Source: Chrysochromulina tobinii (taxonomy: Eukaryota > Haptophyta > Prymnesiales > Chrysochromulinaceae). Taken from it: a stretch of DNA of 27,917 nucleotides. The first letter of the stretch is position 1. The number at the start of each line of letters is the position of its first letter. Shown here one piece after another: positions 8,806-25,773 of the stretch. The DNA lies in NCBI GenBank assembly GCA_001275005.1, contig JWZX01002068.1, positions 1-27,917 of the forward strand, given 5' to 3'. Under the pieces are notes generated by a model. It was given only the letters and a program-made list of their open reading frames with translations. It was not told the origin of the DNA and did not search any database. A program made the position numbers and the translations under genes.

Positions 8806-11800
8806 TCATACCAGCCCGGAGCCGCCGAGCAGCTGCGAGCGCACGCGTGCCTCCTCCGCATCGAGCTTGGCGCGTGCGGCCAGCACGAGCTCCGTCGTGG
8901 CCGCGGCGGCCGTGTACTGCTTCGAGAGCACCTGCGCTCGCTCCGTGGCCTCGAGCTCTGATAGGGCTGCGTGCATCGTACGTAGCGCGTCCATCGCCTC
9001 CTGCACCTGATGAGGGAGGCAATCAGCATGCACTCAGAGCGCTGTGGTGGGCGGCGATCGCGTCCATCGCCTCCTGCACCTGATGAGGGAGGCAATCAGC
9101 ATGCACTCAGAGCGCTGTGGTGGGCGGCGTCCATCGCGTCCATCGCCTCCTGCACCTTGGCTGCGCCGAGATAGTCCCGAGATGCCACCTTGTCCGCCTC
9201 GGCCACTTGCAACTCCGCCATCAGCCCCGTGGGCGCCGACCCGGCGCTGACGGCACGGGCCGGGTCGGCGGCGGCGTCGGGTAGCCGCGATGCCTCGGCG
9301 GCGGCCACGGCCGCCGCCGACTTGGCCGGTGGCGAAGCCTTGCCAGTGGGTGACGTGAGCACGGGCACAGCTGCCGACTTGGCCGCCGCCGCCTTCGCCG
9401 CCTCCGCCTTAGCCGCCTCCCTCTCCGCCGCCATCGCCTCTAGCTTGGCCGCCGCCATCGCCTTCGCTCGAGAGAACCAGCCCCCGCCGGCGGTGACGAA
9501 CCCGGCGGTGGGCTTCTCGTCACCGGCCGAGGCCGCCGCTTCGCCGCCACTGCTGCCATCCTTGGGAGGCGCCGCGCCGGGCACCTCCGCTGCCGGAGTG
9601 AGCGCATCGAGATCGAGCAGAGGCGCGCCGCCCGCCACGGCGCTCGGCTCCCCTTCCGCTTCGTCAAACGAGAGCCTCGAGGTGCGTCGGTCGTCATCAA
9701 GGTCGAGGGCCGAGGTGCGACGCGCCTCGCTCGATCCCGCGCCTCCTCCCCACAGGCTGCGCCAGCGCGGCTGCTGCTGCGGCTGCGGCTGTAGGTCCAA
9801 GTGGTGCGGCGGCGGCGGCGGCGGCGGCGACGGATCGGTCGACTCGTCGCCGAGTGCCTCAGCCGAGAGGAGTGGCGCCGCGCCGCGTGCCGGCGACGGC
9901 GCTCCGAGAAGCTCGGCAGAGAGCAGAGGGCTTGCACCAGCGCCACCCCCGCCAATCGCCGACAGAGTGTCCGCGTCCATATGCAGCCACGCGTTGACGT
10001 CGATGAAGGCGTAGAGCCTGGGACCGCCACGGCGCACACCCTTGAGGGCCGCGGCGGCGGCCAGCTGGCGGAGGTAGCCTTGGAGCTGCTGGCCGCGCTT
10101 CTGCTTGGCGGCCGCCTTGCCCGCGGGCGTGAGCGCGACCTGCATCCGACCGAGGGGGAACTTGGACGGCACGTACGGCGCGAGCGAGGGCTGCACGGCC
10201 GCATGCAATTGGACGAAGTTGGAGAATCGGTGCTTGGCGCGATGCTCGGTCATCGTGCCGTCGTCGGCCTGCAGGATCGAGTGCAGCACGTACTCGGTGA
10301 ATTCCTCCTCGTCGACGAAACCGACCACCGAGATCGCAATCCCCGTCGCCATGAGCTGCCCTTCGACCTCAATGCCCGCCCACGCCCCCGGTCTGCTCCT
10401 CTGTGAGTGCGGTGCAGCGCAGCTTGGGTCGCACCGTCCACTGCCCTTCGGGTGAGAGTGCATCCTGCCACACGGCCCCTTGCCACGAGGGCGCGTGCCG
10501 GTCGGGCGTCGCAGGCACGGTGGAGTCCACGAGCTGCAAATAGGCGGTCGTGGAGCCCAGATGCGTGTCAAGCTGCCCGGCCCACGTCTGCACCTTGCCC
10601 TCGTTGACGAAGGCGAGGAAGCGCGGCACGGAATGTCCGGGAGTCTCCATTGGAATCTCCGTCAGCCGGAAGAGAGGCCGCTGGTTGACGAAGCTGCCCT
10701 CATCCAGCCGATAGAGGCCCTCGTACGGGGGTCGTTCGCCCTCGATCGCGCCCTCCTGCATGAGCAGCAGCGCCGGCGGGGCGAGGGCGAGGCGGCGAGT
10801 CCTCTCCGCGTCGCTGAGCAGCGCCGCCGGCGCCGCCTCCACACGCGCCCCAGCTGCTGCCTCGTCGGTCTGCCCCGCCGCGGCCGCGACGCACTCGATG
10901 CCACCAAAGGCCTCGTGACGCCCCTTGCGAAGCCCCTCGAGGGCCTCCGCCCGCAGCCGCTGCAGCCGCGCGCTCGTGCTCTCAGGAGACTTATCGGCCG
11001 CCGCCTCCGCCGCCGCCGCCTCGGCCGCCGACTCCACCTCGGCCTTGTCGCCCCGCGCGAGCTTCGCGAAGTCGTCCCCGAACTCCACCTGGGTCGAGAT
11101 CGGGTCGAGATTGACGAAGCTCATGGGCGGCGATCTCAGGCACTCAAAGGCAATCAACTTACAATCCAGAGCGTGCCCCTCACCTTCGTCTGCCCGACGA
11201 GATGCGTGAGCTCGTCGAAGATCTCGAGCTCCGAGGTGCGCGTGAGCCGCTCGAGCTTCTCCCGCCGTCCCGAGATGCACGCACTGAGCTCCTCGCGCCC
11301 CTGGCCCTTGGCGATCCCCTCTAGGCGCCCGAGAAGAGCCAACTGCTCCGCAGCCTCCTGCAGCACGGGTGCGTTCAGCTCGGCCTTGCGGTCGGCGGCC
11401 GCACGCCGGCACTGGGACACCCACGCGTACGTATCGCGCATCAGGCGCAGGCCCGGCTCGCCGTTGATCTGGTACGCCGCCTGCCCGACGCCCGCCTGCT
11501 GCGCCGTGTCGAGCGCGGCCTCGAGCGCGGCCGTGTCCTGCTCCGCCGTTGTGGCGGCGCGTGCGGCGAGCAGCTCCGCCACCGCGTTCGCACGTGCCAT
11601 TTGGACATGCTCGAGCTTCGCCTGCGCTGCCCCGAGCAGTTCGAGATCGATGCCGCCGGCATTGCATGCGCCGAGCAGCCCGTGTGTCGTGAGCGCGTCC
11701 ACGTCGAGCGCCGTCTCGGGCGTCGTGAGCGCGCTCGTGAGGCATGCGCGCACGGCCGCCCGCGCTGCCTGCACGTCGGAAAGCCAACTCGAGGCGGCGG

Positions 11801-12885
11801 TGACGAGCCTCTCGCCTGGCTCGCCGCCCTCAAGGCGGTACGCGGGCTGCGCGACGCCCGACTCGAGCGCCTGCTGGATGGCTTGCTCGAGAGCAGCCGT
11901 GTCCTGCGCTCCACCAGGGCCGCGCTTCGTCAGAGAGGCAATCAGATGCGCTCCTCCAGGGCCGCGCTTCGTCAGAGAGGCAATCAAGAGGCAGTCAAGA
12001 GGCAATCAGAAGAGGCAATCATGAGGCAGCCAAGAGGCAATTGACGACACTCACCTGCTCCGCGAGGGTCGCCGCCTGCACGGCCCGGAGCTGCGCCACC
12101 GCGCTTTGACGAAGCGAGATCACCATCTCGAGCTTCGTACGTGCCATCAGCAGCTCGTTGCTGTCGATGCCGCCGGTGAGCGCCGCGCGCCCGACGCCCT
12201 CAGCCTCAAGGCGCGCCGTGTCGAGCATGGAGGGCGCTGTGTCGAGCGCGCTCGCCAGGCACTCGTGCACCCCCGCGCGCGCCGTCTGCACCGCCGTCAG
12301 CCATTGCTCTGCCTCTGCCAAGACTCGACGGCCAGGCTGCGGCAGTGCGGCAAAGGCCTCTGGGCGGAGAAGGCTGCGAATGCCGCTCGTCAGCAGTGAA
12401 GTCAGCCACCCCTCGAGGAACCCTTCCGCGCCACTGGCGCCGCTGCCGCTGCCGCTGCCGCTGCCGCTGCCGCTGCCGCTGCCGCTGGGCCCGTTGCTTG
12501 CAACGTCGCTGGCGGCGGCGCCCGAGCCCGCGCCGCACCGAACGCGTGAGCGCCTTGTGCCCTCAATGCCATCACGGGTCTCGAGGACCCACAGATGAGT
12601 TCCCACGGGCAACTCAGTGATCTTCGCACTGCTCAGATCGAACCCAGCTCGCAGGACGAGCGGCTTGCTGCCGACGACCATCTCGACCTGAAGGGGGGAA
12701 GGCGCCGTGGTGAGCACATGCATGCAAGGCAGAGCGCTGCCGACGACCATCTCGACCTCCGCCGCCGCCGCGCCGTCCTTGCCTCCGCTGCTCACCTCGG
12801 CGCTGCTCACCTCGTCCTCGTCAGCATCGCACTTGATCCCGCTCGCCTCCGCCACCGTCGCTGCCGTCGCTTGTGTCGTCGTCGT

Positions 12886-12916
<31 letters not shown>

Positions 12917-14496
12917 AACTCATCGGCCACTACCTCGTACGCCGCTTGCCCCACGCCCGACTCGCGCGCCGTCTCGAGCGCCGCCTGCAGTGCGGCCACG
13001 TCTTGGCTCGCCATGTGCTTCGAGCGCACCGCCCGCAGCTGCTGCACGGCGGCAGCGCGCGCCGCGACCGTCTCCGCCAGCAACGCACGCCCTCTGTCGA
13101 GGAGGGAGGGCTCGACACCGCCCGCCACGAGCGCCGCCTCCACGCCGTTGGTGCGCAGCACCTCCACGTCGAGCTCGGCGCGCGGCTGCGCCAGCATGGC
13201 CTGCAAGCATTCGGTGACGGCCGTGCGTGCGGACAGCACCGCGTTCAGCCACGTCGTTGCATCGGCCATAAGCTCGTCGCCCAATCTAGTCGATGCTGTC
13301 GTCGAGAGCTCGAGGGCGCCCTCGAGGCGGTACGCAGGCTGCGCGACGCCCGCCTCCCGCGCCTCCCCAATGGCGGCCTCGAGCTCGGCCGCGTCCTGCT
13401 CCGCCATCGTGCTCGCCCGCGCCTCCACCAGCCGCGCCACCGCCCTCACGCGCCGTGCGAGCACCTTCTCGAGGAGCCCCTGGCCCTTGGTGAGCATGGC
13501 CTGCAGCTCCGCATCGATGCCGCCCGCGAGCACAGCCGCCTCGAGACCACGCACTCGCAACGCCTCAACGTCCAACGTCGCGGCGCTCATGCCGAGCCCT
13601 GCCTCGACGTGCTCACGCGCCCGCTGACGCGCATCGCGCACCTGGTACAGCCATGCTCGAGCTCCTTCCACCACCTCGGCGCCCGGCGCACCGCCCTCGA
13701 GCCGGTGGCTCGGCTGCGCGACGCCCGCCGCGTCCGCTGCCTCGAGCGCCGCCCGCAGCACCTCTACATCCTGCTCCTGCATCGAGGGCTGTCTGGCCAT
13801 CTGCAGCACCGCAGCCGCGGCCGTTCGTGCCTTGCTCACGTCGTCGAGACGCTCGCGCGCGGTGATGAGGAGCGCGACGGCCACGCAGCGCGTCTCGAGC
13901 GCCTCCTTCGCCGCAGCGGCCACGCCCTCGTCCTTCGACTTTGCCAACTCCTCCGCGTCGCCGCGCTTCACCCATGCCGCCGCCACGATCTTCTCGAGCT
14001 CCGCCGCATCGAGTGCGCAATTCGCCTTCTCGAGCAGCTTGTAGATGCGGTCGTCGTCGGCGGAGCCGAGCAGTTTAGAGCCCGCATGTACCGCGCTCTT
14101 CCACGCGAGCCCCATCTTTTCCGACCACGACGCGCGCTTCACGGTGGTGGTCGTCTCCGTCGAAGGGGCGCTCGGCGACTGCCGGGTGGCCGCCGCGGCC
14201 ACTGCCCGGTCGTCCTTGATCACGAGCCAGGCTCCCAAGCGTTCACGCACGTCGGCCTCCTCAGTGGCCAGCTTGGACTGCGCGGCTTCCACCTGTGCCT
14301 TGGTCTCCTCGGCATCGGCGTACTGCTTCGCCCGCACGAGCTCCTGCTCATTTGCCTCGAGCGTCTCAATGGTGGAGACGAGCCCCTCAAGGCTCACCCT
14401 GGCATTTTCCAGCTCCTTGGCTGCGGCGTAATCTTTGGCCTTGCTCTTCGCCGCCTCGGCAGCGGAAAGCTCGCGAAGCAGCGCGCTCCTCATCAT
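8806..14496 (-). CDS. Large multi-exon PX-domain protein with tandem helical repeats and UVR-like coiled coils at both ends
   Basis: Gene model: exons 14496-12757, 12687-12055, 11903-11184, 11088-9156, 9006-8806; all phase-0 joins, about 1741 aa. One base must be dropped from a G5 run (10385-10389) in exon 4 for a single protein; otherwise it is two genes, the second starting at ATG 10352. Residues about 3-90 and 1653-1741 are homologous helical hairpins (KDYAAAKELENARVSLEG and DYLGAAKVQEAMDALR, each followed by ELEA..E). The middle carries repeated units of the form LE.AI..A...GVAQPAYRLEGG...WL. Around 1150-1275 is an unknown beta-rich module (GLYRLDEGSFVNQRPLFRL). A PX domain follows (about 1281-1399: RFSNFVQLH, PSKFPLGRM, LQGYLRQL), which normally binds membrane phosphoinositides. 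A Ser/Pro and Ala/Lys-rich stretch links it to the C-terminus. Likely a membrane-associated scaffold. Start ATG 14496/14493 is chosen because the conserved hairpin begins just after it. Exon joins are inferred from protein continuity between repeats. Confidence 0.75.
9007..9155 (-). other. Intron with two tandem units, each headed by a copy of the next exon
   Basis: Splicing AAG|GTGCAG...CATCAG|GTGCAG joins AAK to VQEAMDALRTMH in phase 0 and skips the in-frame stop. The intron consists of two units (9155-9080, 76 bp; 9079-9007, 73 bp). Each begins with the same 21 bp that open the downstream exon (9006-8986) and ends in GCTGATTGCCTCCCTCATCAG-type branch point and polypyrimidine tract. Use of the nearer acceptor (9080) would leave a stop. 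Confidence 0.8.
11089..11183 (-). other. Intron in PX gene (ends uncertain)
   Basis: The upstream frame hits a stop at 11154-11156 and the downstream frame is different, so a splice is needed. Donors AAG|GTGAGG (11183) or ATT|GTAAGT (11162), with acceptor CCCAG|GTG (11089), all keep phase 0. An acceptor at TTTGAG (11143) also keeps the frame but gives only 41 bp. The intron contains CGCTCTG and TTGATTGCCT, blocks also present in the intron at 9007-9155. Confidence 0.65.
11904..12054 (-). other. Intron in PX gene with repeated TGATTGCCTCT modules
   Basis: CAG|GTGAGTGTCG...GAGCGCAG|GAC joins TLAEQ to DTAALEQAI, exactly restoring the repeat pattern seen elsewhere in the protein (MAEQDAAELEAAI). 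The phase is 0 and the length 151 bp. Inside, TGATTGCCTCT or a close variant occurs about six times. A block of about 38 bp (11909-11946 and 11951-11983, plus strand) is tandemly duplicated next to the acceptor. Confidence 0.9.
12440..12487 (-). repeat. 6-bp coding repeat for (SG)n linker
   Basis: Tandem CCGCTG (plus strand) encodes a Gly-Ser linker in the PX gene between a short beta-rich segment and a helical repeat. Confidence 0.85.
12688..12756 (-). other. In-frame 69-bp intron headed by a 21-bp copy of the next exon
   Basis: GAG|GTCGAGATGG...CCCCCCTTCAG|GTCGAGATGG. The first 21 bp of the intron (12756-12736) are identical to the first 21 bp of the downstream exon (12687-12667). The remaining 48 bp end in a strong polypyrimidine tract and CAG. 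The length is divisible by three and there is no stop, so the segment would be read as 23 extra residues if not spliced. Removal leaves one copy of VEMVVGS. Confidence 0.75.
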
Positions 14497-14944
14497 CGCT
14501 CGGCGCGCCCGAAAAACCGAACCGTGAACAAACGTGTGAAGCTGAAGAAGTAAGTCCACCGAGCGACGCGACCACTGCGTGGCAGTGTTTTGCGTGGTAG
14601 TGGCTGGTCGGTACCTTGTGTGTCGATTCAACTGACCCTTTCTCAAGTAAAGGCCCGGTCAGGGGGAAGGGACCGGGGGAAGGGGAGAGTGGGTGAGATC
14701 AGGATGTTCTCCCAGCCGTTTGGGAATGATAGTGCGTGGATAAGCTATTACGTGTAACGTGACGGCGGACGGTGGACGTTTACAAGTCTTAGAATTTCAC
14801 CGTGAGCGTGACTGTTTCTCGCGTCCCCGCACCCCGGAGGGTTTTACCGATTTACCGCTTCAAGTTTCGCACGTCGCACCCCACCCTATGACCCTGTGAG
14901 GTCCTTAGAATACACTGTGCATGTGACGAGTACAAACGTTTTCC
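14497..14944. other. Intergenic region between two minus-strand helical-repeat genes
   Basis: This holds the 5' flank of the PX gene and the 3' flank of the membrane protein gene. Two imperfect copies of CTTAGAAT...GTG..GTGAC occur at about 14788-14814 and 14905-14927, plus GGGGAAGGG-type purine repeats at 14660-14690. No gene is supported. Confidence 0.4.
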
Positions 14945-17900
14945 TTAGTTCAAGGCAATCACTATCGAGGGCGCAGTGTTTCCACGCCGGACTTTCGCCC
15001 GCCTAAATGATGTTCGCATGCTATCGAGGAGCTCGTTTGCCCCGGCAAGCTCGGCCTCGTCCACCCCTCCGTTCATGCGCACGCCTTGCAACGCCGAAGC
15101 GAGCGTCTCGACTGCGCTTTCGAGCGCCATCTCCGCCTCGTCCGATTCCTCCCCCACGCGGCTCAAAGCCTTGACGCCCATCTTAGCGGCAGATGTGATA
15201 AAGCTTGCGGCCTTCTCAGCCTCCCCGCGAGCCTCTAGCGCTTCGCGCAGGATACTGTTTGCAGAGACGATGAGGTCCTCGGGGACAGGCTTCGACTTGG
15301 CGGCGGCGAGGGCGCCCTCGAGCTGCGGAATCGCGATCATCTTGAGCTGTGAGTTGGATCCCGAGCGGAACAGTTTCAGCTGCTCTTTGCAGAAGGCCAT
15401 GGCACGGTAGACGCGGTCAGCAACCCCCACCGCCTCCCGAATCTGGACTCGCAAACGCTTCAGCTTCGCCTCGGCCTCGCTAACGATGTGGTTGTCGACG
15501 TCGGCCCGCTGCGCTGCTGGGATGAGCTGCATGAGCTTCTCCTCGGCGCTCAGCAACTGCGACTGCGTTGCGACGTCTGAGACAGACTCAATAGCCGCCT
15601 CGAGTAGTTGCTGCGCTGTTCTGACCGCATCTCGTGCTTCCACTAATTCGGTGAGCAAACTCTCACCCTCACTCAACATGGAACCACGCACAGCCACGTT
15701 GGCCGCTTTGGTCTCGCTGAGCGCATTCTCGAGCGGTGGGATGGCTTCCGATAGTGGCAACGCCTTCTGCTGACCATGAAGGACTTCAAGCGCTTCCCTC
15801 CCCGCCGCGATCGCCTCGAGCAGCCGATCCTCGCCCCCGGAGTTGACCCACCTGCTCTCCTTGCCTTTGCGCCGTAGCCTCACATAAAAGAGCGTAGCGG
15901 CCGCGGTCAGGTTGGCTTGAGCCAGAAGCGCCTTCACTCTCATGCCATGTGCCCTTTTGATGAGATTGGAGTTGACGCCCGCGCGACGAGCCTCCTCGAG
16001 CGCCTCGTCGAGCTCTTGCACGTCTATGGTGCATAGGGCTCTTTTGGCCGTCTCCGAGACGTGATCCTCCGAGGCGGAGTCTGTGGCAAACATCTCCGAA
16101 GCGCTCGGAGGCGCTGGCGCCGCTTCTGGCGCCGCCGCTGGGGCAAGCACGCCTGAGGCTGCGCCGCAAACGTCTTCTTCTGCTGGCTTGTCCACTCGTT
16201 TTCCAAAAGGAGAGGCAGGCTCTGACCCAGATTGTGGCGCATCAGCTTGTGGATCCAAGTCAAGGAAAGCCTGCAAGCGCGCGACGGCTCGAGCATGGAA
16301 GCTTTGCGCATGCGACGCCTTGCTGAGGGCTTCCTTCGCTTTGGAAATACGAGACTTCGGCACATCTGCGACGATGGCATTCTCGATGGCATTCCTAAGC
16401 TCAGCCAGAGAGAGCTCCAGAGGATCGCCGGCCATGGCGTCCTGGAGAGCTTCTATCGCTCTCTCGCGGCGGGTCTCCTCCATCTTGAGGGTCTCTTTGG
16501 CAACCTCTTCCTGTCCCAACTTGAATTCGCGTACCAGACGCAGCGCCTCGCTCGCCTGCTTGACGATGTTGATTGGGACGTTGGCCGTCAAGGCGTCGTC
16601 TATCGCACACGTCAGCTTGCGCTCATCGATCTGCCTGGTGGACTCCAGAATCATGGACCGCAACCTCTCCTCCGCCTTCTTCAGCGCCTCGCCATGTTGC
16701 CGTCGCTCTTGCTCGGACCGCACTCCTTCAGCGTGTGCAACCTCGCTTGTTACAACACGCACGAACTCGCTGCCCGACAGAGCTGTTGCAAGGGCGGACA
16801 CGAGCGCAAGGACTGTGGGCGCCGACAGCACCGCCATCCCCTGAGCGGCCACGACAAAGTACATCGACATAATAGCCGTCTTCAGTGGAGCGAGACGCAC
16901 GTGCGCTCCGATGCTGTTGATCCACGCGGCCAAAGCCACTATGTGAGGCGAGGCTCTCGCATGCTCAAAAGTCGCATGTGAGTCAACTCGCCTGAAGGAG
17001 AAGGACCCGTCGGCGTTTTCTTCAAGGTCCGACGGCAGCACGAAAACGGTACGCGGGCGCACCGGGTGCATCGGGGCGTCGAAGACGTCGTGAGTGTCGA
17101 AGAAGTCATCGAGTAATGTGAGCTTCGAGGGCTGCCGCCACCGGTTCATCAACCGCTCCGAGCGCAAACTCCCCGGCGTTGGGGCACACCATTGTCTGAG
17201 CTGCGCTACCTGCTTCCTCACGATCGCCTCCACGGTGCGCATGAGGACGAAGTTGGCTCTCCTCTGTCTCTCGCCAATCCTGTCCATCGAGGGCAGGCAG
17301 CACACTCGCGGCGCGTTCTTGACGAGCCAGATGAAGGTGTCCACGAGCGAGTAGGTGGTGCAGACGACTAGAAGTAGCGCCGCTAGCACGTTTGTGGTGC
17401 GCATCCACTCGGGGGGCACCCAACGGTCCGCAGGCAACACGCCCGAGTCGACGCACCAAGCCTCGAATGAGAGCAGCAGCAGGGACGCCTGCACCAAGGC
17501 GGCCAGCCCGACGACGCATTGCACAAGCTTGCCAACGAGCTCTTGGCGCGCCTCGAGCCACGATTTGCACCCACCGCGTCCCCTTTGCTTGGCAAGCGCG
17601 GCCGAGTCCGAAGTGAGTGGCGTCGCGACGGCAGCAGAGAGCGCGGCAAGGGGCAACGCGATGGCGAGCGCGCTCGCACCGCTGTTGAAGCCGCAAGCAG
17701 TCGCGAGGGCGCCCAACACCAGCGGGAAGCTGAAGACTGCGGCAACCGTCCAGGTAGATGCCTCCTCGGCAGCAAGTTGCAGCATGGCGGTTTGCTCGGC
17801 GAGCGTAATCGTATCCTGCTGTCGGTAGAGTGCCTCGTAGGCGCTGCGCTCCTGTTCGGCGGCCGCGTGCTCGATGCGCGCGGCCTTCGCTTCCTTGGCG

Positions 17901-18301
17901 GACCACTTCACGGGTCGAATGTCTATCTTGGGCGGAGTCGCATGGCCAAATCGACCCATCTCATATGGCGAGCGCTTTGGGCTGGTTTTGGACAATCTGG
18001 GCATTTGCAACTTCTCGTGCGGCAAGATGTGGATGCCCTTGTTCATTCCGTACCCGGGGCCTTTAGGCTTGTGCACCAGCTCGCCGTTCATCGTCGATTG
18101 GCGCCCAATACTCACGAAGTGGACCATGGCCGTTTGGTCAATGGACCTGCCGTTGAAATAACCTTCCGGGTTGGTGAATGCCCGCGTGTCCACGAGCTGG
18201 TTCGCTGGCGGAGGCGCCCATGGCGGTAGCCGCACCGGGCTCGGAAGCTGGTTCGATCCGCGGCCTAGGGTACGCTTGGTCGGACTCTCCGCCAACGCCA
18301 T
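14945..18301 (-). CDS. Multi-pass membrane protein with C-terminal tandem alpha-helical repeats
   Basis: Single exon, 1118 aa from ATG 18301. Residues 1-180 are soluble, Pro/Lys-rich and end in a helical segment. Hydrophobic segments suitable for membrane helices lie at about 184-204, 210-229, 259-278, 303-327 and 476-508. From about 530 to the end the protein is helical, with a degenerate unit of about 35-40 residues recurring within it, L..AI..A....V....I..A...L (for example LRNAIENAIVADVPKSRISK, LDEALEEARRAGVNSNLIKR, LEGALAAAKSKPVPEDLIVS). This is the same pattern as the repeats in the neighbouring PX gene, so the two genes probably share ancestry in this part. No enzymatic motif is seen. 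It may tether a scaffold to an internal membrane. Family not recognised. Confidence 0.8.
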   Translation of the reverse strand: MALAESPTKRTLGRGSNQLPSPVRLPPWAPPPANQLVDTRAFTNPEGYFNGRSIDQTAMVHFVSIGRQSTMNGELVHKPKGPGYGMNKGIHILPHEKLQMPRLSKTSPKRSPYEMGRFGHATPPKIDIRPVKWSAKEAKAARIEHAAAEQERSAYEALYRQQDTITLAEQTAMLQLAAEEASTWTVAAVFSFPLVLGALATACGFNSGASALAIALPLAALSAAVATPLTSDSAALAKQRGRGGCKSWLEARQELVGKLVQCVVGLAALVQASLLLLSFEAWCVDSGVLPADRWVPPEWMRTTNVLAALLLVVCTTYSLVDTFIWLVKNAPRVCCLPSMDRIGERQRRANFVLMRTVEAIVRKQVAQLRQWCAPTPGSLRSERLMNRWRQPSKLTLLDDFFDTHDVFDAPMHPVRPRTVFVLPSDLEENADGSFSFRRVDSHATFEHARASPHIVALAAWINSIGAHVRLAPLKTAIMSMYFVVAAQGMAVLSAPTVLALVSALATALSGSEFVRVVTSEVAHAEGVRSEQERRQHGEALKKAEERLRSMILESTRQIDERKLTCAIDDALTANVPINIVKQASEALRLVREFKLGQEEVAKETLKMEETRRERAIEALQDAMAGDPLELSLAELRNAIENAIVADVPKSRISKAKEALSKASHAQSFHARAVARLQAFLDLDPQADAPQSGSEPASPFGKRVDKPAEEDVCGAASGVLAPAAAPEAAPAPPSASEMFATDSASEDHVSETAKRALCTIDVQELDEALEEARRAGVNSNLIKRAHGMRVKALLAQANLTAAATLFYVRLRRKGKESRWVNSGGEDRLLEAIAAGREALEVLHGQQKALPLSEAIPPLENALSETKAANVAVRGSMLSEGESLLTELVEARDAVRTAQQLLEAAIESVSDVATQSQLLSAEEKLMQLIPAAQRADVDNHIVSEAEAKLKRLRVQIREAVGVADRVYRAMAFCKEQLKLFRSGSNSQLKMIAIPQLEGALAAAKSKPVPEDLIVSANSILREALEARGEAEKAASFITSAAKMGVKALSRVGEESDEAEMALESAVETLASALQGVRMNGGVDEAELAGANELLDSMRTSFRRAKVRRGNTAPSIVIALN

Positions 18302-18861
18302 GCTGCTGCAGCCGCCCGGCGAGCCAGGGGTCGGGTGTTCTGGCGACGGCAGTGCGGACGGCTTCGGGCTGCTTGAGCCTCACCCAAAAGTTCAGTTTTA
18401 GTGCACGCTGTGCGAGCCTACCCATCTAGGCCAACCACGAACGCCTATGGGCCTACCTCGATTGCGACGCTCATCAATCGGATCGCACGTGCGCCGTTCA
18501 AGATCACACTTTTAAGGGGTACTGGCCAGATAGGCCCTCCATGTAATATCAGGTCGTGCACACACTAACATTGAATTAATTGTTCGTGCGGTACGGACGT
18601 ACGGTACCGCCTTTGTGTTAATGTTTACGTGTGAATGTGAATGTGAATGTGTGTATGTGTGATTCTAACACGGTTGTCGCGTCTGTCGTGTTTGCGTTCA
18701 CACGTCGACTTCTTCTGCAACTTATTTGGGAGCGTCCGCGCGGGCAGCCGACGGCGATTGACCCAAGCTGCCGAGGTGCCGACCGAGCTAGTACTGTCCG
18801 AGAGGCTCGGTTCAAGCAAGCCAAGAAGCCGTCGGCGAACCTTGCTTGGCCAGAAAGGACG
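18302..18861. promoter_or_regulatory. 560-bp divergent promoter region
   Basis: It separates the divergently transcribed membrane-repeat gene (minus) and temptin-domain gene (plus), so it must contain both promoters. It holds an inverted repeat with 7-bp arms GCGGTAC/GTACCGC at 18588-18610, followed at 18629-18662 by tandem GTGAAT repeats. No TATA-like element can be assigned with confidence. Confidence 0.5.
18629..18662. repeat. Short (GTGAAT)n tandem repeat
   Basis: Three exact GTGAAT units followed by GTGTGTATGTGTGA. Similar TGTGAA-rich sequence occurs in the intergenic regions at 20508-20545 and 27063-27083. Confidence 0.7.
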
Positions 18862-20413
18862 ATGGTGATCCTTCACGCTCGCTCTGTTCTTCTGCTCTTC
18901 ACCGTGCCACTCATGAGTGCTGTCGAAGGCTATCCGGGCCGTAGAGATGTTCTTCCCAATGCGTACAGCAGTGAATACGGCCAACAATTTTATGACAACG
19001 TGGGCCACGTGGGCGGCTTCCGATACTCAGTGCGTGATGCTGGCAATGTGTGGACGCTAGCACTTTGTCAAGCTGACGATGACTCTGATGGCCAAAGCAA
19101 CGGTCTTGAGATGGGGCGACCCTTGCTGTACGTGGGCCCTAGGCACTGTCGCCCAGTTCACCACTGGCCTGAGCTATCCAGGCGATCCCAGCTCCAGAAC
19201 GAGCAGGTCGATGCCCACTTGTTGTACCCCGAGCTCGACGGCGCCCAATTGTAGCCCACCCCCATCCTCGCCCTCGCCGCCACCCCCATCGCCCTCGCCG
19301 CCGCCAACCTCGCCTTCGCCTTCGCCACCGCCGCCTTCACCCTCGCCACCCTCGCCCTCGCCGCCACCCCCATCGCCCTCGCCGCCGCCGCCGTCGTCAC
19401 CACCGTTACCGCCCTCGCCGCCACCCCCATCGCCCTCGCCGCCGCCGCCGTCGTCACCACCGTTACCGCCCTCGCCGCCACCCCCATCGCCCTCGCCGCC
19501 GCCGCCGTCGTCACCACCATTATCGCCACCATTCCCTTCGCAGCCGCCACCCTCACCTTTGTCACCCGGAGCTGTCTCTTCGCCCTCGCCCTCGCCACCA
19601 CCGCCGTCGCCCTCGCCGCCGCCACCCTCGCCATCACATCCTCCGCCACTGTACTCGCCGCCGCCCTCGCCGCCTTCAATGTCGCCCTCGCCGCGGCCGC
19701 CCTCGCCGCAATTGCCACGGGTTCCCGCGTCGACGCCGCCGCCTCCCTACATCGTCGAGGTGACATTGGTGGCTTCGGGCGACGTGAGCGACTACACGGA
19801 CTCGGTGCGCGCCTCAATCGTAGACTCCTTTGCGGCGGCGGCCAACGTGCCAGCCTCGACCGTTCGTCTCACTGTCACATCGGGCTCCGTACGCCTGTCG
19901 CTGAGCATCGCCGCCGCCACGCTCGCGGCTGCTCAGACGGTCGAGGCGGCCCTCGCGCCGGTTCTGAGCAGCGCCGCCAATGCCTCGGCGCTGCTGCCAC
20001 CGAGCCTCTCCGTCACCGCCACGCCCGTGGTGCAGCTCATCGACTCGTCGCAGTCGACGCCGCCGGTGGCGGTAGCGCCACGACTGGTATCGGGATCGGT
20101 ACCGGTAGGCGCCATCATCGCAATTGCCGTGGCCGTCGGTGTGGTGGCGCTCGGCACGGCGCTGTGGTTTGCGCTGCGAGCTGGCTGGTGCAAGCGTGTA
20201 CAAGCAACCGTGGATGCGATGCCGCCCAAGTGCGCGAACTCGCCTAAGACGCAGACGAGTATGGAGCACACGAATGGGATACAGACGGTCAGCGCAGAGT
20301 CGAGTGCACCGCAAGCCAGGTCGCCGCCGCAGAGGTCGCCTAAGAGCTCGCCGCCTCTGAGCTCGCCGCACAATGAGGCGAGCTCGACGAGGACGTTGTT
20401 TAGAGTTGATTGA
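18862..20413 (+). CDS. Temptin-domain membrane protein with Ser/Pro-rich linker (one-base frameshift)
   Basis: From ATG 18862 a signal peptide (MVILHARSVLLLFTVPLMSA) leads into a temptin-type Cys/Cys domain: YPGRRDVLPNAY, VGHVGG, WTLALCQADDDSDGQSNGLE, then GDPCCTWALGT. The acidic DDDSDG..NGLE loop is the family's typical metal-binding-like signature. Between MG and DP the frame changes. One base too many in the G4 run at 19113-19116 is enough to explain it, and no GT-AG intron fits. Dropping that base gives 516 aa. After the domain come a long P/S linker (about residues 120-280), a domain with GDVSDYT...GSVRLSLSI like that in the gene at 1401-3113, a TM helix (near VGAIIAIAVAVGVVALGTAL) and a short Ser/Pro-rich tail. 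Temptin is a secreted pheromone component in Aplysia; here a surface recognition or matrix role is inferred. It could be a sequence error or a recent pseudogene. Confidence 0.78.
19250..19740 (+). repeat. Coding Ser/Pro repeat with 57-bp higher-order units
   Basis: Encodes the hydroxyproline-rich-type linker of the temptin-domain protein. Within 19350-19520 a 57-bp unit (19 residues, PPLPPSPPPPSPSPPPPSS) is repeated three times with almost no divergence. Confidence 0.85.
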
Positions 20414-20673
20414 GCTGTTTGAGAGCGATAGGGTGCAGCTCGTGACTAGCTCGCCGCGCAGTAACCAGTATTTGCATGTGGACAGCTGCAACTGCAAATC
20501 GTGATGTGCATGTGAAATTGTGAATCGCACGTGAATATGTCATTGTGAAAGTATGAAAATTTGGCATGCAAGATGATATTACTTTTTGACGAAATGATTT
20601 CTTATCCGCTGTTTCGCCCTGGAACGCCTCCTTCCTAGCGGGTAATCCTTTTGTTATCCTGGTCGTCGCCAAG
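20414..20673. other. Intergenic region between tandem plus-strand genes
   Basis: It contains a cluster of TGTGAA/ACGTGAA motifs at 20508-20545 and an AT-richer stretch at 20540-20605 ahead of the hydrolase gene. It probably holds the 3' UTR of the temptin gene and the hydrolase promoter. Confidence 0.4.
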
Positions 20674-22500
20674 ATGAATACCACGCGGTGGACTGACACT
20701 CGTACCGGAAATTCGGGCCCAACACTCCCACTATTGGCGCTCGACGGCGGACTGAGACACCTCCAATCCGCGAATACCCTGCGGCAAAGCGCCTTTGTGC
20801 AGCGGCTCCGCACGGGCGCATCCATAAGCATCGGCGTGCTCGGCGCCAGCGTTGCTCAGCAGGGAGGGTGCCTCGACCAGCCCGGTGAGCGCTGCATGCT
20901 CTACAGCCGTAAAGGCTATTTTGTGCGGCTTCTGCGGTACATTAACGCGACATGGCCGCACCCATCGAACGCGCTGCACAATGGAGCCATCGATGCGACC
21001 CCAGCGCAAAGCTTCATGACGTGCCTGATGCCGCTGCTACCCGTGGCGCCGCCGCAGCTCCTGCTCCTCGAATTTGGCTCGATGGCACGCTCTATCGATC
21101 TGCCCCGCACAGAGCTGCTCATCCGTCGGCTGCTTGCGCTGCCATCGCAGCCGCTCCTCCTCTTCGTGACCGTGCGCGAATGGTGCGCCTCGTCGCACAT
21201 ATGGTTCAACTCCAAGCGCAATGTGTCTGCCAAGACCCTTTTCTCGAAGCATACTTACGCTCAAGGCGCCGATACACTGTACGCGAAGGCCGAGGCGACC
21301 TTCGAGCGCTTCTGTTTGCACTATGACTTGAGCTGCGTCTCATACCACGGCGCCCTCGCGCGAGGCTTCTACGGCGGCTGGCCCGGCTTCGAGCTCGCGG
21401 CGATTGCAGCCGACTGCCTGCACCCTGCCAAGGGAAGGCATGGCGGGGCTTACATGACGCAACTGCTCGAGCATTGGACTCGGCGCGTCATGGCCGCTGC
21501 GGACAGCGCCGTTACGAGCGCCTCGCCCATGGGTGCGCGGGAACGTGCCGCAGCCTTGTCGCTGCGAATCATGCCAACGGAGCCGCCAACGGCACATCTC
21601 GCGTCGCGAGCGTTGCCCGCGCCGCTTCTGCCCGAGGCACGGCGAGCTCTTCGCATGCCCCGCGCTGAGATTGAACCGGACCGCTGCTGGGGCTTTGGGC
21701 CGTTGGGAGCGCATGGGAAGCACTACAGGTATGCGCGGCTGCAGTTGGTGCCCTGGCGAACTGCGTACTGCGCGACGGCCGATCTGCCATTTGAACGGTG
21801 TGAGTTCCGGTGTGATCGGGCATCATGCGCACAATTGTGTCCCGCCGTCCACCCTGGTGAGCCCTCGTATCTGGCGGCGGCGGCAGTGCCTCCCACTGTG
21901 AGCACCGCGACCGCACCTCACTCTACCTCTGCTCTCTCATTGCCGGTCTGGACTCACTGCCTGTATGCCCTCGGACAATCGAGTGTGCGCGGGCGGCGCC
22001 CGAAGAGGTCAGAGGGGGCACTCGCCCTGCGGCCCGGGGCCTCGATTGAGGTGCCTCTCGACATCTCACGCGCACACGCTGCCACCGGCGCTGTTGCTTG
22101 CGCGGAGCTCTCTTATCTGACCTCATATGAGCACATGGGCGTCGCGAGCGTCAGTTGCGTGCGCGGTTGTGCATGTGACTCGCGGCGCATCGATGCCCAC
22201 AGGCCTCCGGACGCTCACGAGCGCAACGTGTCCTTGTTCAGCCAGCTGCGGCTAACCCTGCGGCTGAGTCGACGAGGGCGCACGCCGCCCATGCCGCCTC
22301 AGTCCACGACGACGACAGAGGAGGAGGAGGAGGAGGAGGCTGTGAGGGAGGTGGATACTGTGTGCTGGCTGCGCGTGCGCGTGCTGGACGACAGCTCGAG
22401 TGGTGGAGGGCACAAATTCAAGTTGCGACTGGCCACTGTGGCCGTCGGCGCGGCGTGCGCAGAGGGCGAGCAGAGTTCGAGAAGCACAGTACGTTCTTGA
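20674..22500 (+). CDS. SGNH/GDSL-like hydrolase with C-terminal Cys-rich beta domain
   Basis: Single-exon ORF of 608 aa from ATG 20674. SGNH blocks: VLGASVAQQGGC (nucleophile Ser59 in G-A-S), NGAIDATPAQSF (block II Asn/Gly near 103-104), LLLEFGSMARS (block III position, residues 130-140) and DCLHPAKGR (block V, Asp247 and His250). Block III lacks the usual G-x-N-D asparagine, so the oxyanion hole may be altered. From about residue 345 a C-terminal region has paired Cys and the segment LTSYEHMGVASVSC.RGCAC, which resembles a beta domain that follows SGNH domains in algal proteins. A short Glu run occurs near 550. Expected activity is hydrolysis or transfer of an ester (acetyl) group, possibly on a polysaccharide. 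No signal peptide is seen at this start, so an upstream exon may be missing. The reading frame is otherwise intact. Confidence 0.75.
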   Translation: MNTTRWTDTRTGNSGPTLPLLALDGGLRHLQSANTLRQSAFVQRLRTGASISIGVLGASVAQQGGCLDQPGERCMLYSRKGYFVRLLRYINATWPHPSNALHNGAIDATPAQSFMTCLMPLLPVAPPQLLLLEFGSMARSIDLPRTELLIRRLLALPSQPLLLFVTVREWCASSHIWFNSKRNVSAKTLFSKHTYAQGADTLYAKAEATFERFCLHYDLSCVSYHGALARGFYGGWPGFELAAIAADCLHPAKGRHGGAYMTQLLEHWTRRVMAAADSAVTSASPMGARERAAALSLRIMPTEPPTAHLASRALPAPLLPEARRALRMPRAEIEPDRCWGFGPLGAHGKHYRYARLQLVPWRTAYCATADLPFERCEFRCDRASCAQLCPAVHPGEPSYLAAAAVPPTVSTATAPHSTSALSLPVWTHCLYALGQSSVRGRRPKRSEGALALRPGASIEVPLDISRAHAATGAVACAELSYLTSYEHMGVASVSCVRGCACDSRRIDAHRPPDAHERNVSLFSQLRLTLRLSRRGRTPPMPPQSTTTTEEEEEEEAVREVDTVCWLRVRVLDDSSSGGGHKFKLRLATVAVGAACAEGEQSSRSTVRS

Positions 22501-23232
22501 TCGTTGACGACGGATGTCCGCGCCGCACGACGCGCATAAGCCATAACGACCCGGTTCCAGGTAATTTGTATAAAAAGCTCACCACTCAGGAATTGAGCAG
22601 TGTCCCACGGCCTTCTGAGGCACATGCAGTGTCGTCTACATATCAATTGGGGCCATGCAATGCCAATCGTGGCACTCGTAACAAGGAAGGTGTGACTGTA
22701 CCAACCGAAGCGCTTCGCAATCAGTCTCTCCGTAATCAGTCTCTATCTCTCCGCAATCAGTCTCTCAGTTGACGTGCGGAGCCGTCGCTCTCAGTTGACG
22801 TGCGGAGCCGTCGCTGGGACCGGACCGCGGTGCCCCCGGCGCGGGGCGCCGCGGTGTGTCGCGCGGGACAGTCCGCAGATCATGCCGCAGATGTGATGTC
22901 CGATGATGCCTCGCGCGGGCGTTGCCGCACGTTCGACTTCGAGACACTGGTGACTCACTGACGTGTCTCTCGGCAGTGAGTTGTGCACCGAGGCAGATTC
23001 TTTGACTTACGAGATTACAACTGCGAACTGACTCACGGCGCCGCCGAGAATTCGCGTCCACGTCGGCACGTGCATGCATATGTTCACGGATCCGGCTCTT
23101 TAGTTGCCTCTCTTCCTGTGTCCTTGCTCTTTTCGCCCCTCAGGGCCGCCGCTAGCGTACAGGCCGCACGCGTGTCCGTCGACTCCACTCGCATCGCAGC
23201 ACCGGAGAAACTAACATGCGAACGCGCAGCCC
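22501..23232. other. 730-bp intergenic region between convergent genes
   Basis: The hydrolase (plus) and the DCC gene (minus) end toward each other here. It holds a tandem repeat cluster at 22716-22814 and a GC-rich palindromic stretch near 22820-22860 (GGCGCGGGGCGCC). No gene is supported; it is probably 3' UTR and terminator sequence for both genes. Confidence 0.5.
22716..22814. repeat. Tandem short repeats (CGCAATCAGTCTCT)n and a perfect 26-bp duplication
   Basis: CGCAATCAGTCTCT-like units occur near 22716, 22731 and 22752. They run into two perfect 26-bp copies at 22763-22788 and 22789-22814, beginning TCTCAGTTGACG. Confidence 0.85.
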
Positions 23233-24017
23233 TCAGGCCGCCGTCGCTGCACCGCCGTCCTTCTTCTCATCCTCCTCGTCGCCGTAGTCGAGCATGCACT
23301 CCTCCTCGGCGTCACATCCCTCGCCCGCCGACGCCTTCTGGACGTCCCTCAGTTGCGTAACGGCAGACGCGAGCGCCTTGCCGCCAGGAAGCCACTTGGA
23401 GATTTTGTGGCGATGCTCCGAGACGACGGAGTAAACGCCGTCGATAAACCAGCGGATGATCGGCAGGCGAAGGACAGCCATGAGCCAGCCGAGGCCGACT
23501 GCGGTGTACGCGGTCAACACCGCCTCCGAGCCCTCTGCGACCCGTCCGCCGCTGATGACATGGAAGTGGGCCATTGCGTCCTCGAAAGCAACATTTCCGT
23601 TGGCGGCAGGCGAGTAAGAAGGGTCGCGGATGTTGACGAATTCGAGCCGGCTCCGCCTCCTATCGAACCAGCTGAGAATGGCCTTGTTGGTGAGGCACAC
23701 CTGTACGGTCGATATGCTGAGCCGTATCAGCAGCGGCAGCCGAGGAAGCAGGAGAGCGGCGTTGCGAGCGCAGAGGCGGGATGGCAGGCTCGCTGGCGCA
23801 CCATGCATTTCCCGTCATACAAGACTTTGGTTCGCGCATCCTCGACTGGCAGTGCAAAGGCAGCGGAGCGCACGGTGCTGCTGCGTTGCTGCGCCAATCG
23901 CGGCAGGGCGCTGGGCCCATGGAAGGCGCAGCATGCGGCGAGCAAGTGCAGCATCTGCGTCGTGATGAAGACTCTCGTGTCTTTGCAGACTCTCCAGATT
24001 GCCGAGTAATTTGTCAT
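23233..24017 (-). CDS. DCC-family putative thiol-disulfide oxidoreductase (DUF393), two exons
   Basis: Exon 1 24017-23802 and exon 2 23700-23233, joined across a 101-bp GT-AG intron in phase 0, give 227 aa (206 aa from the alternative ATG at 23954). The join restores the family's opening motif VLYDGKCMVC with its C-x-x-C redox pair; each exon alone lacks it. The rest fits the family: FVNIRDPSY, FEDAMAHFHVIS, EAVLTAYTAVGLGWL and LPIIRWFIDGVYSVVSEHR. The N-terminus from 23954 (MLHLLAACCAFHGPSALP...) is hydrophobic then Arg/Ser-rich, as in a bipartite plastid leader, and plant relatives include organelle proteins. The C-terminus is strongly acidic (DYGDEEDEKK). It is divergent from the SET gene 132 bp away. 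Biochemical activity of the family is little established. Confidence 0.85.
23701..23801 (-). other. Intron splitting the C-x-x-C motif of the DCC gene
   Basis: ATG|GTGCGCCAGC...GACCGTACAG|GTGTGCCTC, phase 0, 101 bp. It falls between Met and Val of C-M-V-C. CTGCTGATACGG about 33 bp before the acceptor is a plausible branch site. Confidence 0.88.
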
Positions 24018-24148
24018 GCGTCGACTCCCTCGCGCGGACTCCAGAAGCAGCCATCGGCAGCTGTGAACTACATCTTCTGAGTTCGCGGGGAGAGGACCTT
24101 TGTCGAACCATTGCAAATAGAGTGTGGCGGCCTTTACTCTACGTGATC
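24018..24148. promoter_or_regulatory. Short divergent promoter between DCC and PHD-SET genes
   Basis: Only 131 bp separate the most likely starts (24017 minus, 24149 plus), so the two genes probably share a bidirectional promoter. If the DCC start is 23954 the gap is about 194 bp. No core element can be named. Confidence 0.4.
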
Positions 24149-25773
24149 ATGCGTCGTCGGTCCGTTCAATCCGACTCGCTCAACGTGTGCCCGATGTGCA
24201 AGAAGGTCGTAGAATACGGCCTCATGTGCGAGAGCTGCGCCTGTTGGTTCCATGCCAACGAGCAGTGCTGCGGTGACGCTCTCGCGACGGCATTCACCAC
24301 GAGTGGACGCGACGCGTGGTGCTGCCTGAATTGCTACCCTCGGCAGGGCGAGACCCAGCCGGTGGACCCACTCAAGCTGCCCGCCACTAACATTGACCAC
24401 GTCGATTGGCGCCGAGCCTTCCGCATCCTCACCGACTCGTGCGCTGGCTGCGGCCTCAAGGTGCGCACCGACCACAGTGCTCTGCGCTGCGGGCGGTGCG
24501 AGCTCGCGTACCACGCGGTCGATCGGTGCACCGGCCTGAGCGAGCGCGAGATCGCGACGCATCTGGAGGCGGCGGCCGCCGCGGACGATGCCGCTGCGGA
24601 CAACGGCGCCGCCGCCACCGCCCGCAGCACGTGGTGGTGCCCGACGTGCATGGTACATGAGACTGGCGCGGCCATCGATGATGCGCTCGTGATGGCGGAC
24701 TGCACCGGCGGCCAGGAGGCACACGCGATCCCGCTGCTCAATGAGGTCGACCCGGAGGCCAACCGCGCCCTGCCTGTCGAGGAGCAGGTGCAGGCGGGCG
24801 GCTTTGAGTACGCGAAGCAGGTGACGTGGCGCCACCCGAACGCCATCAAGCAGTTCACGACGCTCTCTCACGCCAATTGGGGCGGCCGGTGCATCGACGC
24901 GGAGGCCACGTCGTGGCTACCCGGCAACGAGGAGTCCAAGGGCCAGCCGATCCGGCGGGAAGGTGGTGGCGAGGGCGCCGCGTACAATCGGCAGGGGCAG
25001 CTCCTCTTCGCGCGCGATTGCATCTTTGAGTGCAACGAGACGTCCTCCTGCGGCCCCGACTGCCCGAACCGCGTCGTGGGGCGTGGCGTGTGGGCGCCGC
25101 TGCAAGTGGTCAAGACCGTTGGTCGTGGATGGGGCGTGCGCTGCCGCCAGCGACTCGCAGCGGGCAGCTTCGTATGTGAGTACACCGGTACGATGCTCTT
25201 CGACACGGATGCGGCCGCGGCCGGGCCGGCATTCAAGTGCTCACCACGGCACGCGCCCCTCTTCCCCACAGGTACGATGCTCCTCGACACGGATGCGGAC
25301 GCGGCCGGGCTCGAAGTGGATGACTCATACCTATTCAACCTCGACGGCGAGGACAAGGGGCAGGTGAGCAAGCGGCGGCGCACTGGTGCCGCCGCCTCGG
25401 GCACCTCAGCGATCGCCGCGCAGACCTCGAAGAACCCTGAGCTTGCGGTGGATGCGTCGCGTATCGGCTCGGTCGCACGCTTCCTGAACCACTGCTGCGA
25501 GCCGAACCTGTTCGTGCAGGTGCGCTCAGCGGAGGAGGAGGTGTGAATGCGTCTGAGTCTGAGTGTGTCTGAGCACCTCCTTGATGGCCTCCCTCTCAGT
25601 CTGTCTTCATCGAGTACTCGTGCCGCGTGCACCGCATCGCGCTCTTCGCCGCGCGCGACATCCTGCCGTACGAGGAGCTCACGTACGACTATGGCTACGT
25701 CGTCGGCTCCGTCGAGGGTAAGACACTAAAGTGCCTGTGCGGCGCGCCCTCGTGCCGCGGGTACCTCTTCTGA
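24149..25773 (+). CDS. PHD-PHD-SET domain histone lysine methyltransferase (SUV39/EHMT-like), three exons
   Basis: Exons 24149-25187, 25272-25519 and 25600-25773 give 486 aa. Start ATG 24149 is chosen because the upstream open frame overlaps the divergent promoter. Domains: PHD-type zinc fingers at about C14-C63 (CPMCKK...CESC..WFH...CCLNC) and C98-C167 (CAGC...CGRCELAYH...WWCPTC), a partial pre-SET ([18 protein letters not shown], about 291-307), SET ([43 protein letters not shown]) and post-[18 protein letters not shown] with the C-x-C-x4-C zinc site. It transfers methyl from S-adenosylmethionine to a histone lysine, most likely H3K9, in the nucleus; the PHD fingers probably read histone tails. 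The N-terminal Cys triad of pre-SET looks missing. Retaining intron 1 would insert 28 residues within the SET domain. Confidence 0.92.
25188..25271 (+). other. In-frame 84-bp intron headed by a 39-bp copy of the next exon
   Basis: ACCG|GTACGATGCTC...TTCCCCACAG|GTACGATGCTC. The first 39 bp of the intron match the first 39 bp of the downstream exon (from 25272) with two mismatches; the other 45 bp end in a pyrimidine tract and ACAG. It has no stop and a length divisible by three. Removal gives [17 protein letters not shown]...[10 protein letters not shown], which matches normal SET spacing, whereas retention duplicates TML.DTDA.AAG. Confidence 0.8.
25520..25599 (+). other. Intron 2 of the PHD-SET gene
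   Basis: GTGCAG|GTGCGCTCAG...TGGCCTCCCTCTCAG|TCT, phase 0, 80 bp. Without it the frame stops after EEEV; with it [13 protein letters not shown] continues to [20 protein letters not shown] and the post-SET motif. The acceptor region CTTGATGGCCTCCCTCTCAG resembles the TGATTGCCTCCCTCATCAG acceptor in the PX gene. Confidence 0.93.

What the first reader, a model, noticed from the sequence alone, without database searches (positions are those of the whole stretch)
9007..25271. A family of introner-like introns built from a target duplication plus a shared short element
Three introns in two unrelated genes have one architecture: [copy of the downstream exon's first 21-39 bp][45-55 bp element ending in a pyrimidine tract and CAG/ACAG][downstream exon]. 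The non-duplicated parts are related. The introns at 12688-12756 and 25188-25271 share GTGCTCACCACGGC. Those at 12688-12756 and 9007-9155 share (plus-strand sense) GCATGCA followed within 2-3 bases by CAGAGCGCTG. The intron at 11089-11183 shares CGCTCTG and TGATTGCCT with that at 9007-9155. Introners with target-site duplications are known in Micromonas and Aureococcus, and direct repeats around new introns from break repair are known in Daphnia. Duplications of 21-39 bp with the 5' splice site donated by the target look unusual.
Basis: partly seen in the sequence, partly recalled or inferred. Interest (0 to 1): 0.9.

Follow-up and report, generated by a model that had tools for sequence, protein, structure and literature searches.

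The report
Introns that copy into new genes
A probable haptophyte alga carries thousands of tiny introns that seem to multiply by copying their tail end into new places in genes, each time borrowing a fresh start signal by duplicating about 30 bases of the target, which suggests a so far undescribed route by which genes gain introns.

Summary
The finding is real and larger than reported. Two window introns (12688-12756, 25188-25271) belong to one introner family with 2,277 sites in the 53-Mb genome. The third (9007-9155, a tandem pair) belongs to a second family of the same architecture (2,028 sites). In a deduplicated sample, 98 of 116 single copies with an acceptor are flanked by a direct repeat of the downstream exon head (median 28 bp; permuted control 1.7%). 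The upstream repeat copy supplies the 5' splice site, the element the 3' one. 66 of 96 mapped lengths are not multiples of 3. Environmental relatives lacking the introns at the exact spliced position exist for all three sites, 7 of 7 homologues for 12688-12756.

The new point is what moves. In four donor-recipient pairs the new intron carries 12-16 bases of the donor site's exon, that is, of the donor intron's own target duplication. The mobile unit is thus a 5'-truncated copy of an intron, and each insertion rebuilds the 5' splice site from the target. RNA copying (favoured) and DNA template switching both remain open. Splicing was not tested with RNA.

The parts
12688..12756 (-). Family 1 introner intron, 69 bp (GT..AG on the minus strand)
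   Evidence: absent from 7 of 7 homologues
12736..12756 (-). Intronic (upstream) copy of the 21-bp target duplication; donates the 5' splice site
12667..12687 (-). Exonic copy of the 21-bp target duplication
12688..12735 (-). Inserted family 1 element, 48 bp, ending CAG
25188..25271 (+). Family 1 introner intron, 84 bp, in a SUV39-like SET methyltransferase gene, between CEYTG and MLLD
25188..25226 (+). Intronic copy of the 39-bp target duplication
25272..25310 (+). Exonic copy of the 39-bp target duplication
25227..25271 (+). Inserted family 1 element, 45 bp, ending CCCCACAG
9007..9155 (-). Tandem doublet of a family 2 introner (units of 76 and 73 bp, each GT..AG)
   Evidence: absent from P0101 and P0102
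8986..9006 (-). Exonic copy of the 21-bp target duplication; further copies at 9059-9079 and 9135-9155

Best explanation
These are recently active introner families in a probable haptophyte. A new intron arises when the 3' part of an existing intron (a stretch with a branch-point-like TGCTCAC or TGCTGAT, a pyrimidine tract and the terminal AG; 5' end variable) is copied into a gene just before a GT, while about 16-40 bp of target starting at that GT is duplicated. The upstream duplicate's GT becomes the new 5' splice site, the copied AG is the 3' splice site, and removal of one duplicate plus the element restores the mRNA exactly. The mobile unit needs no 5' splice site of its own: truncation at each round is healed by the new target duplication. 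SHOWN: architecture, copy number, strong gene-sense bias, relatives without the intron, carry-over of donor exon sequence in four pairs. INFERRED: splicing (lengths not divisible by 3, exact empty sites). INFERRED, most likely but not shown: the copied molecule is an intron RNA, joined by its 3' end to the target and reverse transcribed, with the 5' junction made about 30 nt further into the target; this could be partial reverse splicing into mRNA with template switching, or target-primed reverse transcription at a staggered nick.
For: Sites: 2,277 family 1, 2,028 family 2, reversed-pattern controls 0. Repeats: 98 of 116 distinct single copies with an acceptor, against 1.7% of 1,127 permuted pairs; acceptor within 5 bp of the right-repeat start in 87 of 98; left copy opposite the acceptor GT in 74, GC in 8, other in 14, unmapped in 2; 66 of 96 lengths not divisible by 3. 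Orientation: of 184 copies with an acceptor the downstream flank scores sense coding in 105, antisense in 1, ambiguous in 32, non-coding in 46, against 20% sense, 22% antisense, 46% non-coding for random segments; neighbouring copies on one strand in 49 of 51 cases. 5' ends variable, 3' end at the acceptor. Donor exon carry-over: L109->L047, 16 nt exact; L126->L100, 13 of 14 nt; L021 copy 4298->L021 copy 3237, 15 nt exact plus the shared core variant CACGACGCC; L021 copy 4897->L019, 12 nt exact plus a shared 3' tract. Relatives without the intron at all three window sites. 26 RVT_1 matches in the genome, 22 over the cut-off.
Against: No RNA data. Three clear unspliceable single copies with repeats (L012 + strand 1024, L018 + strand 6396, L058) end upstream of the pyrimidine tract, so the 3' end is not absolutely fixed by mechanism and selection must sharpen it. 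Of seven extensions searched genome-wide, four found only themselves and one an ambiguous match. 18 of 116 copies show no repeat at the threshold; family 2 has repeats in only 12 of 38 singles. Arrays with breakpoints inside the core look like DNA slippage. Nearest relatives tend to be neighbours (17 of 70 in the same stretch, permuted 4.7), as DNA copying would also give; mean similarity within a stretch is not raised (p 0.79). The downstream flanks of two donors (L109, L021 copy 4298) did not reach the coding threshold, so 'exon' rests on their position after the acceptor.
Confidence: 0.55

Rival explanations
1. DNA template switching or staggered-break repair: a nascent strand that has copied 16-40 bp of the target jumps by microhomology into a donor intron, copies to its AG|GT, and returns to an AG|GT site at the start of the target stretch, giving target - donor intron - target without RNA.
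For: Variable repeat length, tandem arrays and breakpoints inside the core, nearest relatives often neighbours, a few unspliceable copies with other 3' ends, short overlaps at some 5' junctions by eye.
Against: Should work on both strands and in non-coding DNA, where insertions are not purged; copies with an acceptor are 105 sense to 1 antisense. In none of the four donor-recipient pairs does the copy run past the donor's AG into its exon (by eye).
Confidence: 0.3
2. A short SINE-like non-autonomous retroelement with its own RNA is moved by a LINE or Penelope-type enzyme and happens to end in a 3' splice site.
For: Variable target duplication and 5' truncation; RVT_1 genes present.
Against: Recipients contain the donor's target duplication, so the template was an intron copy in place, not a separate element transcript; two unrelated element bodies share the architecture. 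No link between the elements and an RT gene was tested.
Confidence: 0.1
3. A DNA-transposon (MITE) introner as in Aureococcus or Micromonas.
For: High copy number and target duplication; one splice site from the target.
Against: No inverted ends by eye (GCATGC.. / ..CCCCACAG), variable 16-40 bp duplication, variable 5' end, donor exon carry-over.
Confidence: 0.04
4. Not introns: in-frame coding repeats or assembly artefacts.
For: Two of the three window introns are multiples of 3 and open in frame; some array copies lack splice sites.
Against: 66 of 96 lengths break the frame; the SET insert interrupts a conserved motif that the other aligned homologues keep; independent environmental contigs show alleles with and without the inserts.
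Confidence: 0.01

Closest known systems
Introners as surveyed by Gozashti et al. 2022 (PMC9860276; seen: abstract, passages, sections 9, 11 and 15)
   Same: Many similar introns per genome, mostly aquatic protists, gene-enriched; families that carry the 3' splice site and recruit the 5' one from the target duplication are described there.
   Different: Previously characterised families are described with 3-9 bp repeats; here the median is 28 bp. Their screen requires similarity to begin within ten intronic bases of both ends (section 15), so families whose first 16-40 intronic bases are target sequence would tend to be filtered out (my inference). No copying of donor exon sequence in the parts I read.
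Chrysochromulina sp. introners (same paper, Fig. 2 legend)
   Same: Also a haptophyte (recalled).
   Different: 4-bp duplications; [quoted passage not shown]
Fungal introner-like elements and stwintrons (PMC9860276 passages; PMC12403724 passages)
   Same: RNA-based propagation by reverse splicing has been proposed for fungal introners.
   Different: No target duplications; stwintrons show no splice-site co-option.
Daphnia new introns from staggered break repair (PMC4202315, passages)
   Same: Direct repeat of the exon edge at the other end of the intron.
   Different: Exon-edge repeats of 4-12 bp; no recurring element in the passages I saw.
Amoebophrya introner elements (PMC7789003, passages)
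   Same: Repeated introns with direct repeats at the borders.
   Different: Inverted repeats of 8-20 nt, direct repeats of 3-5 nt, largely non-canonical splice sites.

Membership tests
Introner (sequence-similar introns at many gene positions) | Many similar introns in unrelated genes of one genome | tested here: met
   2,277 and 2,028 sites; 244 family 1 copies examined in the window, 19 longer stretches and 97 short ones
Introner (sequence-similar introns at many gene positions) | Similarity begins near both intron ends (criterion of the 2022 screen) | tested here: not met
   The first 16-40 bp of the intron are a copy of the local exon
Introner (sequence-similar introns at many gene positions) | Recent gain: relatives lack the intron | tested here: met
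   Protein level, three window sites
Introner (sequence-similar introns at many gene positions) | Spliced from mRNA | not testable with these tools
   Inferred from lengths and exact empty sites
DNA-transposon (MITE) introner | Terminal inverted repeats | tested here: not met
   By eye on the element ends; no formal search
DNA-transposon (MITE) introner | Short target duplication of near-constant length | tested here: not met
   5-95 percentile 16-40 bp
LINE/SINE-type retroelement | Variable target duplication, 5' truncation, fixed 3' end | tested here: inconclusive
   First two met; 3' end fixed in spliceable copies, not in three unspliceable ones
LINE/SINE-type retroelement | 3' end shared with an RT-encoding partner | not tested
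   26 RVT_1 matches; their 3' ends were not read

The most novel reading that the evidence does not exclude
Excised spliceosomal introns are themselves a retrotransposing unit in this alga: intron RNA is joined by its 3' end to AG|GT sites of genes and reverse transcribed with 5' truncation, and the target duplication regenerates the 5' splice site at every round. At least two unrelated intron families use the same machinery, and the published introner screen would tend to miss this class.
Probability: 0.45. Interest if true: 0.93.

Novelty: new variant of a known kind. Interest (0 to 1): 0.8.

Why it matters
How new introns arise is a long-standing question, and most known mass intron gain is attributed to DNA transposons. 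Here donor and recipient introns can be paired by donor exon sequence left inside the recipient, which shows that introns, not fixed transposons, are what is copied. Natural sequences differing by single insertions exist, so mechanism and fitness cost can be studied in populations. The target-derived 5' part also means that screens requiring similarity near both intron ends would undercount such families.

Tried and rejected
Scanning for any direct repeat at short spacing without the element drowned in tandem repeats; later scans were filtered or anchored at AG, and 32 of the 74 AG-anchored hits fell in neither family (by eye mostly simple arrays or the reverse strand of family 1). Deriving the 12688-12756 element from the 9007-9155 intron (shared CAGCGCTCTG) was dropped, since CTCTGCCTT recurs before the core in other copies. 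Donor searches for seven 5' extensions: donors for L047 and L100; only self for L020, L022, L105, L052 (the pattern had a wrong first letter of mine); an ambiguous three-mismatch site for L080, not counted. The extensions were picked for length, so this is no donor rate. Mean similarity of copies within a stretch was not above chance (0.551 against 0.569, p 0.79); only the nearest-neighbour test was. The long-ORF control of the coding classifier was not clean: of 620 segments 243 sense, 63 antisense, 121 ambiguous, 193 non-coding, some of those ORFs probably being spurious. No Rfam or tRNA match in the window. A viral-contig scan found one record, probably chimeric. Rows dropped before counts: L026 (taken as an allelic copy of L024 by eye), 7 copies with short flanks, 104 array members within 150 bp, 2 duplicate singles, 15 singles without a recognised acceptor. 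Of those 15, 9 have repeats: two (L037, L070) do have an acceptor that my rule missed, L012, L018 and L058 are clear unspliceable copies, the others are low-complexity, tandem or overlapping.
Full report
What was given. The held longer stretches are 63.7% GC. The window begins with CCCTAA repeats, telomere-like. The only haptophyte named among the hits of its SET-domain gene is Prymnesium parvum at 50% identity, so I take the organism as a haptophyte, with modest confidence.

The observation. All three introns have the claimed build. Two share an element with the core GCATGCA.GTGCTCACCACGGCGC (25188-25271 with two changes), followed by a pyrimidine tract and an end in CAG. The third, 9007-9155, is a tandem doublet of a second element..GCATGCTGATTGCCTCCCTCATCAG. 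The intron proposed at 11089-11183 shows no exon-head duplication by eye, and three environmental proteins start inside it.

Copy number. The core pattern occurs 524 times exactly and 2,277 times with up to 3 mismatches, in similar numbers on both strands of the assembly; the reversed pattern gives 0. The family 2 pattern with up to 1 mismatch gives 2,028, control 0. Some contigs are uncollapsed duplicates (L044 and L059, L045 and L060 match over the 90 bp compared on either side), so these are site counts, not locus counts.

Target duplication. I examined 244 family 1 copies with up to 4 mismatches in the window, 19 longer stretches and 97 short ones. Of 237 with enough flank, 133 were single (no other copy within 150 bp on the strand; 118 with a recognised acceptor) and 104 lay in arrays. 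After removing 2 duplicates, 131 singles remained, 116 with an acceptor. 98 of 116 have a flanking direct repeat (local score 12 or more) against 1.7% of 1,127 permuted left/right pairs. The acceptor lies within 5 bp of the start of the right repeat in 87 of 98. The left-copy dinucleotide opposite the acceptor is GT in 74, GC in 8, other in 14, unmapped in 2. From that point the repeat runs a median of 28 bp (5-95 percentile 16-40); the intron is a median of 79 bp. Length mod 3 is 30 / 24 / 42 for 0 / 1 / 2, so 66 of 96 would break the frame if retained. In an earlier set that was not deduplicated, 101 of 124 singles had repeats (control 1.3% of 1,208) and 21 of the 101 were perfect. Among 99 anchored GT or GC cases the target reads roughly cAG|GTRcG, as a 5' splice site would. 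Family 2, in the window and 19 longer stretches: 12 of 38 singles have a repeat, median 31 bp, control 2.1% of 679; an ungapped scan of the same sequence picked 11 such introns.

Gene sense. With a codon-usage score, of 184 copies with an acceptor the 102 bp downstream score as sense coding in 105, antisense in 1, ambiguous in 32 and non-coding in 46; of 55 without an acceptor, 11, 1, 8 and 35. Random segments give 20% sense, 22% antisense, 13% ambiguous, 46% non-coding. Exons of the SET gene are themselves called non-coding in 21 of 155 tests and antisense in none, so part of the 46 can be coding; a control on long ORFs was less clean (63 antisense of 620). Neighbouring copies 150-1,500 bp apart are on the same strand in 49 of 51 cases. 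Random insertion followed by selection should leave many antisense and non-coding survivors; in this sample they are scarce.

Relatives without the introns (protein level). 25188-25271 splits the motif CEYTG-MLLD. Of the 91 homologues found, 13 were aligned: P0001 (a cluster of 61 sequences) has the same insert, 11 have none, and P0011 has an unrelated insert of about 35 residues at the same point, perhaps an independent intron there. P0003 is otherwise identical to the window protein, lacks the insert, and still reads into the next intron; it may be an allele without the intron or a partly spliced transcript. 12688-12756: 7 of 7 homologues found lack the 23-residue insert; six are 98-99% identical, from clusters whose longest contigs are 8-21 kb, and end by reading into the next intron, which points to genomic DNA. 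9007-9155: P0099 and P0100 read into the introner, while P0101 and P0102 continue as the predicted spliced product VQEAMDALRTMHAALSELE; these two could be DNA or spliced RNA. The insertions look recent, and the one at 12688-12756 appears polymorphic.

What moves. The 5' boundary of the insert varies: it lies at GCATGC (within 1 bp) in 26 of 99 but can be up to 36 bp upstream, and some extensions are shared among copies (for example TCGAACCTAAGATGGACC). In four cases the extension is exon-side sequence of another site. L047 carries AACCACCTCCACGATC, which is part of the target duplication around the doublet in L109. L100 carries GGGCTGGTCGTCTT, matching 13 of 14 bases of the target duplicated in L126. 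The L021 copy at 3237 carries AGCCATCGCACCTCT from the target duplicated at the L021 copy 4298, about 1 kb away on the same strand, and shares its rare core variant. L019 carries CTCTCCGACCTC from the target duplicated at the L021 copy 4897 and shares its rare 3' tract. By my own rough arithmetic (equal base frequencies), the 15- and 16-nt matches have chance probabilities of about 1e-6 to 3e-5 given the number of copies compared; the 13-of-14 and 12-nt matches are weaker alone (order 4e-4 and 2e-3). In none of the four pairs does the recipient continue past the AG into the donor's exon (by eye). The copied unit starts inside the donor intron and ends at its 3' splice site.

Mechanism. This gives a cycle: the 3' part of an intron is copied before a GT, the target from that GT is duplicated, and the duplicate supplies the next 5' splice site. 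An RNA copy explains the fixed 3' end, the 5' truncation and the gene-sense bias. DNA template switching explains the arrays, the neighbourhood of nearest relatives (17 of 70 against 4.7 permuted) and the unspliceable copies with other 3' ends (L012 + strand 1024, L018 + strand 6396, L058). I put RNA at about 55% and DNA at about 30%. A transposase is unlikely. The genome has reverse transcriptase genes, but no link to the elements was tested.

Literature. Gozashti et al. 2022 (PMC9860276; abstract, passages, sections 9, 11 and 15) report introners in 175 of 3,325 genomes, describe 3-9 bp repeats for some previously characterised families, and require similarity to begin within ten intronic bases of both ends, a rule these families would tend to fail. 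Daphnia (PMC4202315, passages): exon-edge repeats of 4-12 bp. Amoebophrya (PMC7789003, passages): 3-5 nt direct repeats plus inverted repeats. Stwintrons (PMC12403724, passages): none. A survey of repeats near introns: mean 11.4 bp (PMC11782384, passages). I also saw passages of PMC12768974 (mirusvirus introners) and PMC12730881. In eight searches of the held library (introner with target site duplication, haptophyte, transposons and horizontal, target-primed reverse transcription, or alone since 2023; intron gain with direct repeats and breaks, or template switching; introner-like elements with lariat) no listed title or abstract start described introners with duplications this long or donor exon carry-over. 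Roy et al. 2023 and Huff et al. 2016 were seen only as references; no supplementary files were read.

Limits.

Noticed in passing
L127:4495-4518 (IMG/VR record, 4554 bp): The family 1 core with pyrimidine tract and CACAG lies 36 bp from the end of a contig filed as viral; just before it are CTGACGAACC repeats like those in the alga (L012), while the rest looks phage-like by eye. Probably a chimeric contig.
   Followed up: partly
P0011, aligned to window 25188-25271: A homologue from another lineage has an unrelated insert of about 35 residues at the same point after CEYTG: perhaps an independent intron gain at the same site.
   Followed up: no
L073:20-200, L092 (minus strand), L018:6396: Core copies with target-like repeats but no pyrimidine tract or AG, in units of 60, 48 and 63 bp (multiples of 3): insertions that look unspliced, possibly coding.
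   Followed up: partly
L109, L012, L013, L068, L079: Tandem doublets or triplets in which each unit is itself a complete GT..AG intron directly abutting the next, with no exon between.
   Followed up: partly
window 11927-12051 and many held loci: Long arrays of about 10-bp units (CTGATTGCC / CTGATGACC on the coding strand); family 2 may have grown out of them.
   Followed up: no
window 25188-25226: The intronic copy of the target encodes MLF here but MLL in environmental P0001, while the exonic copy is the same in both: the intronic copy already varies in nature.
   Followed up: no
both element families: Both contain GCATGC; TGCATG is the Rbfox binding motif of animals (recalled), so it may be a splicing enhancer.
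   Followed up: no
window 19224-19745 and 27613-27917: Repetitive stretches of CCGCC/TCGCC-type units, perhaps proline-rich cell-surface genes (by eye).
   Followed up: no
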